NCBI RefSeq assembly: GCF_900112415.1
Contig: NZ_FOLV01000041.1
Span: forward strand, 1-34,449
Length of the DNA: 34,449 nt
Direction: 5' to 3'
DNA from: Bacillus sp. 491mf
GTDB taxonomy: Bacteria > Bacillota > Bacilli > Bacillales > Bacillaceae_G
In this document: in pieces, positions 31,032-32,964 of the stretch
Layout: each line of letters opens with the position of its first letter
Position numbering within the stretch: position 1 is the first letter of the stretch
The notes under the pieces: model-generated
Databases searched by the model: none
Told to the model about the DNA's origin: nothing
What the model saw: the letters and a program-made list of their open reading frames with translations, nothing else
Made by a program: the position numbers and the translations under genes

Positions 31032-32294
31032 TTAGCCAATTACATACCTTTTATGCTTTTCAAAATCACTCATTTTACATTCCACAGTAATCTTTGTACC
31101 TTCATTTTCATAATCCGTCGCTAAAACGTTCGCATGCTCATTAAAATAAGAAATTAGCTGTCCTTGATCATAAGGAATTAACATTTCACACTTTGTATAA
31201 TCTTTATAAATTTGCGTGCGAATCATTTGCACAAGTTCATCGATACCTACTTTTTGTTTCGCAGATAAATACACCCGATCATCTTGTACTTTCGGAATTT
31301 CAATATCTACAACATCCGCTTTATTATAAGCATAAATTGTCTGGATATTTTCCACACCAATTTGTTTTAACGTTTGATTTGTAATCTCGATAAGATGTTC
31401 ATAGTTCGGATTTGCATAATCAACGACATGAACTAATAAATCAGCCTCCGCTACTTCTTCTAACGTCGAGCGGAACGCTTTCACAAGATGATGCGGCAAT
31501 TTACTAACGAATCCAACGGTATCTGTTAATAAAAACGATTTATTATCTGCCAATTGAATATTTCGCACAGCTGTTTCAAGTGTCGCAAACAACATATCTT
31601 TTTCAAATACTTGCTTCTCCGCAGAACCGTTAAATATTTCAAGCATCGCATTCATCGTTGTTGATTTACCGGCATTTGTATACCCTACTAACGCAACAAC
31701 TGGTACTTCATTTTTCTTACGTTGTTTACGCTGCGTTTGACGCTGTGCAACGAGTGCTTCTAACTCTTTATTTAACGCAGCAATTTGCTCTTCAATCTTA
31801 CGGCGATCAAGCTCTAATTTCTTTTCCCCTACCCCTTTGTTCTTCGTACCAACACCGCCGCTTTGTCTTCCTAACGATTCACGAAGTCCAATTAAACGAG
31901 GCATCATATATTGCAAATGTGCTACCTCAACTTGTAATTGCGCTTCTTTCGTTTTAGCACGCTGCGCAAAAATATCTAAAATTAATATCGTACGATCAAT
32001 TACTTTACAATCTATATCTGCTTCTAAATTTCGAATTTGTGAAGGTGATAACTCATCATTGAAAATGACCAAATTCGCATCTGCTTCTTTCACGAACGCT
32101 GACACTTCTTCAATCTTACCCGTTCCAATATAATGAGATGGGTTTACACGATGTAAATTTTGGGTCACTTTCCCTATCACTTCTACATCGCACGCTTCTG
32201 CTAAGTTCGCTAACTCCTCCATCGAATATTCGAAATCACTTTCACTATTTAAATTCACTCCGACTAATATTGCCTTTTGTACTAATTGTTCCAT
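31032..32294 (-). CDS. hflX: Ribosome-splitting GTPase HflX
   Basis: 420 residues. The HflX N-terminal domain (about 1-120, SHYIGTGKIEEV), the Gly-rich linker motif (GRQSGGVGTKNKGVGEKKLELDRR), and a GTPase domain with G1 GYTNAGKS, G3 DTVGF and G4 NKAD are in order. A C-terminal ubiquitin-like domain completes it. HflX binds 50S/70S ribosomes, splits stalled ribosomes and, in the HflXr variants of Listeria, gives resistance to macrolides and lincosamides. The linker reads GTKNKGVGE where housekeeping HflX usually has GxRGPGE, which hints at a paralogue. GGAGG precedes the ATG at 32294. The leader upstream carries an attenuator. Confidence 0.93.
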   Translation of the reverse strand: MEQLVQKAILVGVNLNSESDFEYSMEELANLAEACDVEVIGKVTQNLHRVNPSHYIGTGKIEEVSAFVKEADANLVIFNDELSPSQIRNLEADIDCKVIDRTILILDIFAQRAKTKEAQLQVEVAHLQYMMPRLIGLRESLGRQSGGVGTKNKGVGEKKLELDRRKIEEQIAALNKELEALVAQRQTQRKQRKKNEVPVVALVGYTNAGKSTTMNAMLEIFNGSAEKQVFEKDMLFATLETAVRNIQLADNKSFLLTDTVGFVSKLPHHLVKAFRSTLEEVAEADLLVHVVDYANPNYEHLIEITNQTLKQIGVENIQTIYAYNKADVVDIEIPKVQDDRVYLSAKQKVGIDELVQMIRTQIYKDYTKCEMLIPYDQGQLISYFNEHANVLATDYENEGTKITVECKMSDFEKHKRYVIG

Positions 32295-32480: not shown

Positions 32481-32518
32481 AAAACAAAAAGAGGGCGTAT
32501 TCGTCCTCCCCTCTTTTT
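32481..32518 (-). terminator. Attenuator terminator in the hflX leader
   Basis: On the minus strand AAAAAGAGGG (32509-32518) pairs with CCCTCTTTTT (32486-32495), followed by TTTTTGTTTTG. It lies about 190 bases before hflX and after the leader ORF, so it would end transcription before the gene. Its 5' arm can alternatively pair with TCTTTTTA upstream (32544-32551). Confidence 0.85.
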
Positions 32519-32534
32519 ACATATAAGTTCAATA

Positions 32535-32655
32535 GGGTTCCTTTAAAAAGACAGACCAATCCCGTTTACTCTGTACACAGACAGAGCCTTTGAGCGCTAT
32601 TCAATTATTGGCACAAAGTATTGAGACGTAATCTGATTAAGATCAAAGGAAACCC
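32535..32655 (-). promoter_or_regulatory. Alternative-pairing region of the hflX leader
   Basis: GGGTTTCCTTT over the leader SD/start (32645-32655) can pair with AAAGGAACCC (32535-32544) with one bulge. TCTTTTTA (32544-32551) can pair exactly with TAAAAAGA (32512-32519), the 5' arm of the terminator, forming an antiterminator. A local hairpin CTCTGT/ACAGAG lies between. The layout is that of a ribosome-mediated attenuator. Confidence 0.6.
32605..32646 (-). CDS. hflX leader peptide with RLR macrolide-arrest motif
   Basis: TTG at 32646 with GGAGGGG (32653-32659) at ideal spacing opens 13 codons: MILIRLRLNTLCQ, then TAA. Arg5-Leu6-Arg7 is the +X+ motif at which macrolide-bound ribosomes stall. 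The ErmD leader of bacilli, as I recall it (MTHSMRLRFPTLNQ), shares the RLRxxTLxQ frame. The ORF lies between a good promoter and an intrinsic terminator upstream of hflX. A longer overlapping ATG frame (32597-32665) lacks a ribosome binding site. Confidence 0.7.
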   Translation of the reverse strand: MILIRLRLNTLCQ

Positions 32656-32679
32656 CTCCGTTCATTAAAAGTTACATAA

Positions 32680-32708
32680 ATTTTAGCATAGTTATGGAGC
32701 TGACACAA
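32680..32708 (-). promoter_or_regulatory. hflX leader promoter
   Basis: TTGTGT (32703-32708) and TAAAAT (32680-32685) are 17 bases apart and the -10 is extended by TGC. Transcription should start near 32673, 27 bases before the leader start codon. Confidence 0.75.
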
Positions 32709-32759
32709 GAATAAATTCCATTTACTAACATAAAGAAAATCGCTATTTTTCTATTTTAT

Positions 32760-32957
32760 TCATCTTTTTTTGCGTATATTTCTTATTATCAATATCCATA
32801 CACCTATAACGAGTAAAGCTTAAACCGAAATAACGATGATACTGTTTGTTTTACGATCATTTGGCATAGCATGTTCAACATTCACTTGTTTCGTTGGAGC
32901 TTGCCCCTTCGCAATATGACTTAAAACAGATACATCATTCCATACAAAGTTAATGAA
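32760..32957 (-). pseudogene. C-terminal fragment of a membrane-anchored protein with an internal stop
   Basis: 65 sense codons in one frame, interrupted by a TAA at 32820-32822, end in TGA at 32760. The translation reads FVWNDVSVLSHIAKGQAPTK and MPNDRKTNSIIVISV, stop, then ALLVIGVWILIIRNIRKKR: an ectodomain tail, a membrane helix and a basic stop-transfer, which is a typical C-terminal anchor. No start or upstream part is present, because the ppk2-type gene ends 8 bases away. The tail recalls serine hydrolases of the class C beta-lactamase/PBP type, but that is a weak guess. Confidence 0.5.
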
Positions 32958-32964
32958 TTATATC

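What the first reader, a model, noticed from the sequence alone, without database searches (positions are those of the whole stretch)
32481..32708. ErmD-like RLR leader peptide and attenuator upstream of hflX
Minus strand, in order: promoter TTGTGT-N17-TAAAAT with extended -10; GGAGGGG; a TTG-started 13-residue ORF MILIRLRLNTLCQ; inverted segments GGGTTTCCTTT/AAAGGAACCC; TCTTTTTA, which can pair with the terminator's 5' arm; an intrinsic terminator; then hflX. Established: Arg-X-Arg motifs stall macrolide-bound ribosomes, and ErmD-type leaders (MTHSMRLRFPTLNQ as I recall) use this to induce resistance; HflX-type GTPases rescue antibiotic-stalled ribosomes in Listeria. Inference: macrolides or ketolides stall the ribosome on codons 5-8, covering the SD segment so that it cannot pair with AAAGGAACCC, the antiterminator forms, and hflX is read through. 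I know of no description of an RLR leader controlling hflX in the B. cereus group.
Basis: partly seen in the sequence, partly recalled or inferred. Interest (0 to 1): 0.92.

Follow-up and report, generated by a model that had tools for sequence, protein, structure and literature searches.

The report
Macrolide-sensing leader switch before hflX
A short RNA in front of a ribosome-rescue gene carries the signs of a switch that senses macrolide-type antibiotics; such switches are already described, but the same RNA was also found here in front of several other kinds of macrolide-resistance gene in related bacteria.

Summary
The minus strand carries an extended -10 promoter, GGAGG, a TTG-started ORF MILIRLRLNTLCQ, a strong long-range hairpin (z -3.8), a terminator, then hflX. 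A covariance model of such leaders finds the element in 64 of 80 related hflX loci and in 137 of 397 and 102 of 398 sampled genomes. Of 223 elements examined, 214 lie within 700 nt of an HflX, Erm, Mph, ABC-F, Mef-like, RlmA or LmrB-like gene. A model built from hflX leaders alone recovers a leader before an ErmD-annotated stretch of B. licheniformis, and none of six second-copy hflX loci. It is very probably a macrolide-responsive attenuator of an HflXr-type gene.

It is not new in kind: Listeria rli80-hflXr (PMC6310831) and the uORFC-6-1 motif of Bacillales (PMC8632094) are published. The start-region helix is maintained between loci, but the RLR codons pair with GGGATTGGTCTG, which is probably the main trigger, and the antiterminator fails a swap test. 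The least documented part is one RNA family shared by seven gene classes.

The parts
32680..32708 (-). Promoter: TTGTGT, 17 nt, TAAAAT with TG at the extended -10 position
   Evidence: Read; a promoter-like site at a similar distance (-14 to -21) in 135 of 158 elements
32653..32659 (-). Shine-Dalgarno GGAGGGG of the leader ORF; GGGG also begins the 5' arm of the outer helix
   Evidence: GGAGG in 20 of 21 rows of A1
32605..32646 (-). Leader ORF, TTG start, MILIRLRLNTLCQ; RLR at residues 5-7 (AGA TTA CGT, 32634-32626)
   Evidence: Arg/Lys-X-Arg/Lys in 209 of 223 related leaders, with synonymous codon variation
32552..32563 (-). GGGATTGGTCTG, pairs with the RLR-codon stretch CAGATTACGTCTC in the resting fold; strongly conserved
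   Evidence: conserved, but no pair of this helix changed on both sides
32569..32619 (-). Two inner hairpins of the family consensus (CTTTG..CAAAG and CTCTGT/ACAGAG)
   Evidence: 8 of 28 pairs with changes on both sides, all in these two helices. In the window 2 of 10 pairs of the first hairpin are not standard (rows), and its own minimum-energy fold draws this part as one longer stem
32535..32544 (-). AAAGGAACCC, 3' arm of the outer helix, pairs with the SD/start region
   Evidence: own -13.3 versus swapped -8.2 kcal/mol, 0 of 2000 permutations as low
32544..32551 (-). TCTTTTTA, proposed antiterminator strand, complementary to TAAAAAGA of the terminator 5' arm
   Evidence: Duplex -10.2 kcal/mol; the swap test in the same call gives no support
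32481..32519 (-). Intrinsic terminator: AAAAAGAGGG / CCCTCTTTTT and U tract
   Evidence: hairpin -13.7 kcal/mol
31032..32294 (-). hflX (HflXr-type GTPase, 420 aa)
   Evidence: TIGR03156 458.5 bits, cut-off 216.75; PDB chain 8a57_D 493 bits, next chain 277.7

Best explanation
The element is a ribosome-mediated transcription attenuator that senses macrolide-type antibiotics and controls an HflXr-type ribosome-splitting GTPase. Without drug the leader peptide is translated to its stop, the long hairpin forms (RLR codons with GGGATTGGTCTG, SD/start with AAAGGAACCC), the terminator folds and transcription stops about 190 nt in. With drug the ribosome stalls on the RLR codons, with Leu6 expected in the P site. 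It opens the codon helix, weakens the outer helix and frees GGTCTGTCTTTTTA to hold the 5' arm of the terminator long enough for RNA polymerase to read into hflX. Shown here: anatomy, conservation, helix covariation, one RNA family with macrolide-resistance genes. Inferred: stalling, antitermination and drug response, for which the Listeria counterpart gives the experimental support.
For: Strong fold, z -3.80. The element is found in 64 of 80 related hflX loci, the best 80 of 417 relatives; in one of the 64 (L068) it stands before an Erm gene with hflX next. 214 of 223 elements have, within 700 nt downstream, HflX (102), Erm (25), Mph (25), ABC-F (23), Mef-like MFS (23), RlmA (11) or LmrB-like MFS (5). 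The 154 found by the RNA model in genomes, without hflX as bait, split into HflX 38, Mph 25, Erm 24, ABC-F 23, Mef-like 21, RlmA 10, LmrB-like 5, unassigned 8. Arg/Lys-X-Arg/Lys in 209 of 223 leaders, against 4 of 318 in the other two frames of 159 of them. The hflX-only model R2 finds 17 of 17 element-bearing loci tested outside its training set and 0 of 6 second-copy hflX loci. Covariation: 8 of 28 pairs with changes on both sides, 0 of 500 shuffles as high on four of five measures. Outer-helix swap test, 0 of 2000. Terminators 106 of 137 versus 6 of 136. In Listeria the corresponding leader attenuates transcription, needs its start codon for induction, and induction is lost when ErmC protects the ribosomes (PMC6310831, parts 1-3 of 5 read). 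Telithromycin stalls ribosomes on ErmDL with the middle residue of RLR in the P site (PMC8298421, passages).
Against: The codon helix has no pair changed on both sides. On the fifth covariation measure, further pair types, 42 of 500 shuffles are as high. In full-length folds the terminator wins in all five states tried, with no antiterminator. Before the terminator's 3' arm is made, expected antiterminator pairs vary from 0.2 to 5.6 with the assumed footprint, and 5.0-5.8 if only RNA downstream of the ribosome may fold. Own antiterminator pairs are slightly worse than swapped ones (-10.15 versus -10.63; 1993 of 2000 permutations as low), though better than shuffled (-7.84). In ErmDL, erythromycin stalling does not need RLR and the N-terminus contributes; the window's N-terminus (MILI) differs. 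Conservation in the window's own species group could not be tested. The leader-picking script favoured ORFs with the motif and the model includes those codons, so 209 of 223 is partly by construction. 16 of 80 related hflX loci have no hit.
Confidence: 0.85

Rival explanations
1. The leader senses slow translation in general (for example arginine or leucine shortage, or any drug that slows the ribosome) rather than macrolides specifically.
For: The codon helix would be opened by any pause over codons 5-8. The first + codon is AGA in 96 of 125 distinct leaders. In Listeria, induction at the transcript level is higher with lincomycin than with erythromycin.
Against: The genes downstream are of macrolide, lincosamide or streptogramin resistance classes in 214 of 223 elements, HflX counted among them. 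Arg may be replaced by Lys (KFR in 17 of 125 distinct leaders), which fits charge and not arginine supply.
Confidence: 0.1
2. The switch acts mainly on translation of hflX or on mRNA stability, with the terminator a minor part.
For: The yxjB leader of B. subtilis combines control of termination and of translation (PMC6851288, passages), and mRNA stability contributes for mef(E) (PMC4335068, passages).
Against: A hairpin with T-run follows most elements (106 of 137 versus 6 of 136). The hflX SD lies outside the stretch folded; its sequestration was not tested, so this rival is weakened only by the terminator.
Confidence: 0.1
3. The structure is a decayed leader that no longer works in this organism.
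For: TTG start; the window's copy differs from the family at some conserved places, and 2 of 10 pairs of one inner hairpin are not standard.
Against: Promoter, SD, motif, codon and outer helices and terminator are all present; TTG starts occur in 20 of 125 distinct leaders. It scores 136.8 and 138.4 bits with R1 and R2, but it is in both training sets.
Confidence: 0.05

Closest known systems
Listeria monocytogenes rli80 - hflXr (lmo0762), PMC6310831
   Same: RLR-containing short uORF, terminator / antiterminator / anti-antiterminator model, HflX-type GTPase downstream. The window protein's best solved relative is PDB chain 8a57_D (493 bits), which I recall to be Listeria HflXr.
   Different: 14-aa uORF with ATG start there, 13 aa with TTG here. 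The rli80 sequence was not at hand, so RNA homology was not tested.
uORFC-6-1 motif, PMC8632094
   Same: uORF with conserved Arg-Leu-Arg, primarily upstream of hflX, predominantly Bacillales, covarying RNA structure (passages); very probably the same element.
   Different: Described from 51 representatives, no mechanism tested in the passages seen. Its consensus figure is not held, so column-by-column identity was not checked. Here the family also stands before six other resistance gene classes.
erm(D)/erm(K) leaders of B. licheniformis (MTHSMRLRFPTLNQ)
   Same: Homologous RNA: R2, built from hflX leaders only, scores the leader before an ErmD-annotated stretch of B. licheniformis at 86.6 bits; 79.8% identity over 97 nt with the window.
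   Different: Stands before a 23S rRNA methyltransferase (automatic prediction, 501 bp listed); N-terminus MTHSM against MILI.
mef(E)/msr(D) leader of streptococci (MTASMRLR), PMC4335068
   Same: RLR leader peptide and transcriptional attenuation; elements found here include peptides that begin MTASMRLR.
   Different: That paper saw no homology between the mef(E) and erm(K) 5' regions beyond the peptide (passages). The streptococcal sequence itself was not tested with the models.

Membership tests
HflXr-regulating RLR attenuator (rli80 type) | Short uORF with RLR, preceded by SD and promoter | tested here: met
HflXr-regulating RLR attenuator (rli80 type) | Mutually exclusive terminator and antiterminator, with the ORF in the anti-antiterminator | tested here: inconclusive
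   Terminator and codon/SD helices present; antiterminator possible but absent from full-length folds and without support in the swap test
HflXr-regulating RLR attenuator (rli80 type) | Drug-dependent ribosome stalling and read-through | not testable with these tools
   Needs toeprinting, Term-seq or a reporter
HflXr clade of HflX GTPases | Closer to Listeria HflXr than canonical HflX is | tested here: met
   8a57_D: 493 bits for the window protein, 484.6 for the close copy of genome G001, 304.6 for that genome's second copy. That 8a57 is HflXr is recalled; no tree was made
HflXr clade of HflX GTPases | Longer loop of the helical domain than canonical HflX (PMC12493154, passages) | tested here: met
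   Motif-to-motif spacing 22 residues in 71 and 23 in 1 of the 72 element-led HflX proteins that matched the pattern (of 87); 20 in the 5 second-copy loci that matched (of 6). HflX loci without the element that matched (3 of 16) have 22, 22 and 24, so the loop does not mark the leader
HflXr clade of HflX GTPases | Gives resistance to lincomycin or erythromycin | not testable with these tools
   Would need growth assays
uORFC-6-1 motif | RLR uORF upstream of hflX in Bacillales with covarying RNA structure downstream of the start codon | tested here: met
   description seen as passages; published consensus not compared.
ErmD/ErmK-type leader | Homologous leader RNA and RLR peptide | tested here: met
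ErmD/ErmK-type leader | Controls an Erm methyltransferase | tested here: not met
   The downstream gene is hflX; so it is a relative, not an erm leader
Any Rfam release 15 family | Match at gathering score | tested here: not met
   0 matches in the whole window; around the element only four weak matches with E 3.3 or more

The most novel reading that the evidence does not exclude
One RNA family, not merely one peptide motif, is a common macrolide sensor of Bacilli. The hflX leader, the ErmD-type leader and leaders of Mph, Mef-like, ABC-F, RlmA and LmrB-like genes descend from one attenuator that has been re-used in front of at least seven resistance gene classes, with the +X+ residues and the N-terminus of the peptide tuned to gene or drug.
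Probability: 0.75. Interest if true: 0.6.

Novelty: new member of a known kind. Interest (0 to 1): 0.48.

Why it matters
The wider result matters more. A covariance model of this leader works as a marker: 214 of 223 hits have a gene of a macrolide, lincosamide or streptogramin resistance class (HflX counted among them) within 700 nt downstream. It can point to uncharacterised resistance genes, the 9 unassigned hits being first candidates, and it makes the question of how one sensor is re-tuned for different drugs directly testable.

Tried and rejected
Rfam at both thresholds: no family. Phages, distant mode: no match to the element. Own genome: not held. Conservation inside the B. cereus group: not testable. 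The best of 397 genomes has 75% DNA identity over the hflX gene (G001). A near-mode plasmid search with 20,450 bases of the window gave two records, Bacillus arachidis (91.3% over about 1 kb, a CAAX-protease gene) and Cytobacillus spongiae (74.9% over about 310 bases).

Antiterminator covariation: tested and not found, partly because terminator 5' arms are alike and because the hairpin finder picked wrong hairpins in some loci (L071, L003). A first codon-helix energy test gave meaningless values and was redone (own -13.0, shuffled -7.7, window -11.8 kcal/mol). Rows dropped before counts: 22 of 159, 29 of 159, 49 of 159, because an anchor pattern or a hairpin was not found; one search analysed codons in 125 of 135 distinct leader ORFs, the rest lacking the motif. 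The elements fetched from genomes were the best-scoring plus a spread, not a random draw: 90 and 64 new ones, both of which cap their lists. The two genome samples overlap, and some elements repeat loci of the hflX set (for example L219 and L080).

Full report
What is there. On the minus strand between a polyphosphate-kinase-like gene and hflX lie, in order, a promoter with extended -10 (32708-32680), GGAGGGG, a TTG-started 13-codon ORF MILIRLRLNTLCQ (32646-32605), a long-range hairpin, a terminator (32519-32481) and hflX (32294-31032). The transcript up to the terminator folds with z -3.80; no shuffle of 200 does as well. In that fold the RLR codons CAGATTACGTCTC pair with GGGATTGGTCTG, and the SD/start region pairs with AAAGGAACCC.

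Is it more than chance. With 130 of 159 loci usable, own arms of the outer helix pair at -13.3 kcal/mol on average against -8.2 when arms are swapped between loci; own is better than the mean of swapped in 130 of 130, and 0 of 2000 permutations is as low. Locus by locus the test is softer: in its first version 64 of 137 loci had an own arm better than 90% of foreign arms. The two inner hairpins of the family covary: 8 of 28 pairs have changes on both sides, four of five measures are reached by 0 of 500 shuffles, and the fifth (further pair types) by 42 of 500. With partners slid by 1-3 columns only 29-51% of cells pair, against 94%. In the window itself 2 of 10 pairs of the first inner hairpin are not standard, and its own minimum-energy fold draws this part as one longer stem. 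The codon helix is 90% paired but has no change on both sides, so it rests on conservation and energy. The promoter position is shared (135 of 158 elements), and so is the terminator (106 of 137 versus 6 of 136 control stretches).

What family it belongs to. A covariance model R1 of 21 leaders (18 from hflX loci with the window, 3 from plasmids) finds the element in 64 of 80 related hflX loci, which are the best 80 of 417 relatives, and in none of six second-copy hflX loci. In one of the 64, L068, it stands before an Erm gene with hflX next. It is found in 137 of 397 genomes drawn from the order of Priestia taiwanensis and in 102 of 398 drawn from its class; the two samples overlap. I examined 223 elements (1 window, 64 hflX loci, 4 plasmid stretches, 154 genome loci). 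Each was assigned by its best blastp match (E at most 1e-15) among ORFs that begin within 700 nt downstream, to 22 reference proteins from the clusters. The result is HflX 102, Erm 25, Mph 25, ABC-F 23, Mef-like MFS 23, RlmA 11, LmrB-like MFS 5, unassigned 9. In the 154 genome loci alone HflX is 38 and the other six classes 108 together. Class names rest on NCBIfam for the window protein and 11 of the references. The Erm model's curated cut-off is passed by both Erm representatives. The Msr cut-off is passed by one ABC-F representative and narrowly missed by the other (671.1 against 680), which passes the broader ribosomal-protection ABC-F model. Mph, Mef and RlmA representatives match their families below the curated cut-offs (one Mef representative is annotated Mef(F) in its record). 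The LmrB-like one passes only the broader DHA2 efflux model.

Is the ErmD likeness only a shared tripeptide. No. R2, built from the 18 hflX leaders only, finds 17 of 17 other element-bearing loci tested. Among them are the leader before an ErmD-annotated stretch of a B. licheniformis plasmid, peptide MTHSMRLRFPTLNQ (86.6 bits, E 8e-18), a Mef(F)/Msr(G) plasmid leader (82.4) and a Planococcus macrolide phosphotransferase leader (76.6). None of six second-copy hflX loci matched; one chance-level second hit (16 bits, E 0.35) was listed in L187. The window is 79.8% identical to the B. licheniformis stretch over 97 nt. PMC4335068 (passages) noted the peptide likeness of mef(E) and erm(K) leaders but no further homology of their 5' regions; I did not test the streptococcal sequence.

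The peptide. Arg/Lys-X-Arg/Lys occurs in 209 of 223 leaders, RLR in 87 of 125 distinct ones with the motif. Codons vary synonymously: at the first position AGA 96, CGA 4, CGT 2, CGG 2 beside Lys codons AAA 20 and AAG 1; at the third CGT 63, CGA 46, CGC 7, AGA 6, CGG 2, and AAA 1. Selection therefore probably acts on the residues too. My picking rule favours ORFs with the motif, and the model includes these codons; the other two frames of the same stretches give 4 of 318.

The downstream protein. It is an HflX GTPase (TIGR03156) whose best solved relative is chain 8a57_D (493 bits; the next chain 277.7). In genome G001 the close copy gives 484.6 bits to that chain and the second copy 304.6. The spacing across the helical-domain loop is 22 residues in 71 of the 72 element-led HflX proteins that matched the pattern (of 87) and 20 in the 5 second-copy loci that matched (of 6). 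A longer loop is the feature PMC12493154 gives for HflXr (passages). That 8a57 is Listeria HflXr is recalled; no tree was built.

How it most likely works. Without drug the hairpin forms and the terminator follows. With drug the ribosome stalls on RLR, opens the codon helix and frees GGTCTGTCTTTTTA to pair with the terminator's 5' arm. If only the RNA downstream of such a ribosome may fold, before the terminator's 3' arm is made, 5.0-5.8 antiterminator pairs are expected; if upstream RNA may fold too, 0.2-5.6 depending on the footprint. With the full RNA the terminator wins in all five states tried, so the antiterminator has to work kinetically or the model is incomplete. Own antiterminator pairs are no better than swapped ones (-10.15 versus -10.63 kcal/mol), though better than shuffled (-7.84). 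In Listeria the same logic was shown by mutation and RNA-seq (PMC6310831, parts 1-3 of 5 read). PMC8298421 (passages) shows telithromycin stalling ErmDL at RLR and erythromycin stalling it without need of RLR, so ketolide-like drugs may be the better inducers here; this is inference.

What is known. PMC8632094 (passages) describes uORFC-6-1: 51 representatives, predominantly Bacillales, primarily before hflX, RLR, covarying structure. That is very probably this element. Searches for other accounts. Among the listings seen I noticed no paper that treats the erm, mph, mef, ABC-F, rlmA and hflX leaders as one RNA family. I saw titles and starts of abstracts of capped lists, subscription journals are mostly missing and supplements were not searchable, so this is not proof of absence.

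Limits. Conservation within the species group therefore remains untested.

Noticed in passing
window 32750-32960, minus strand: Between the PPK2-like gene and the hflX promoter lies a short frame with a hydrophobic, membrane-anchor-like end that is interrupted by an in-frame stop; it looks like a gene remnant. Described only.
   Followed up: no
L181, L182, L245, L276, L277: Five elements precede LmrB-like (lincomycin efflux type) MFS genes; two of their picked leaders (L181, L182) lack the +X+ motif, which may mean that the peptide is tuned to lincosamides.
   Followed up: partly
L083, L271, L140, L173, L227, L101, L128, L130, L166: Nine elements without an assigned gene. Four have no ORF of 90 aa or more that begins within 700 nt (L128 has an RlmA-like ORF 963 nt downstream); the others precede an SDR-type oxidoreductase, an MFS protein, an ABC ATPase and short or unplaced frames. 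Candidates for unknown resistance genes.
   Followed up: no
L021 and L023 (Paenibacillus radicibacter, one contig): Two hflX genes about 14 kb apart, each with the same leader peptide MNNFYAVRLRFNALCR.
   Followed up: no
plasmid hits H23 and H24: A DNA search with an Mph-type leader (L102) also hit two Acinetobacter plasmids (81.9% over 94 nt), outside the Bacilli; possible horizontal spread of the leader.
   Followed up: no
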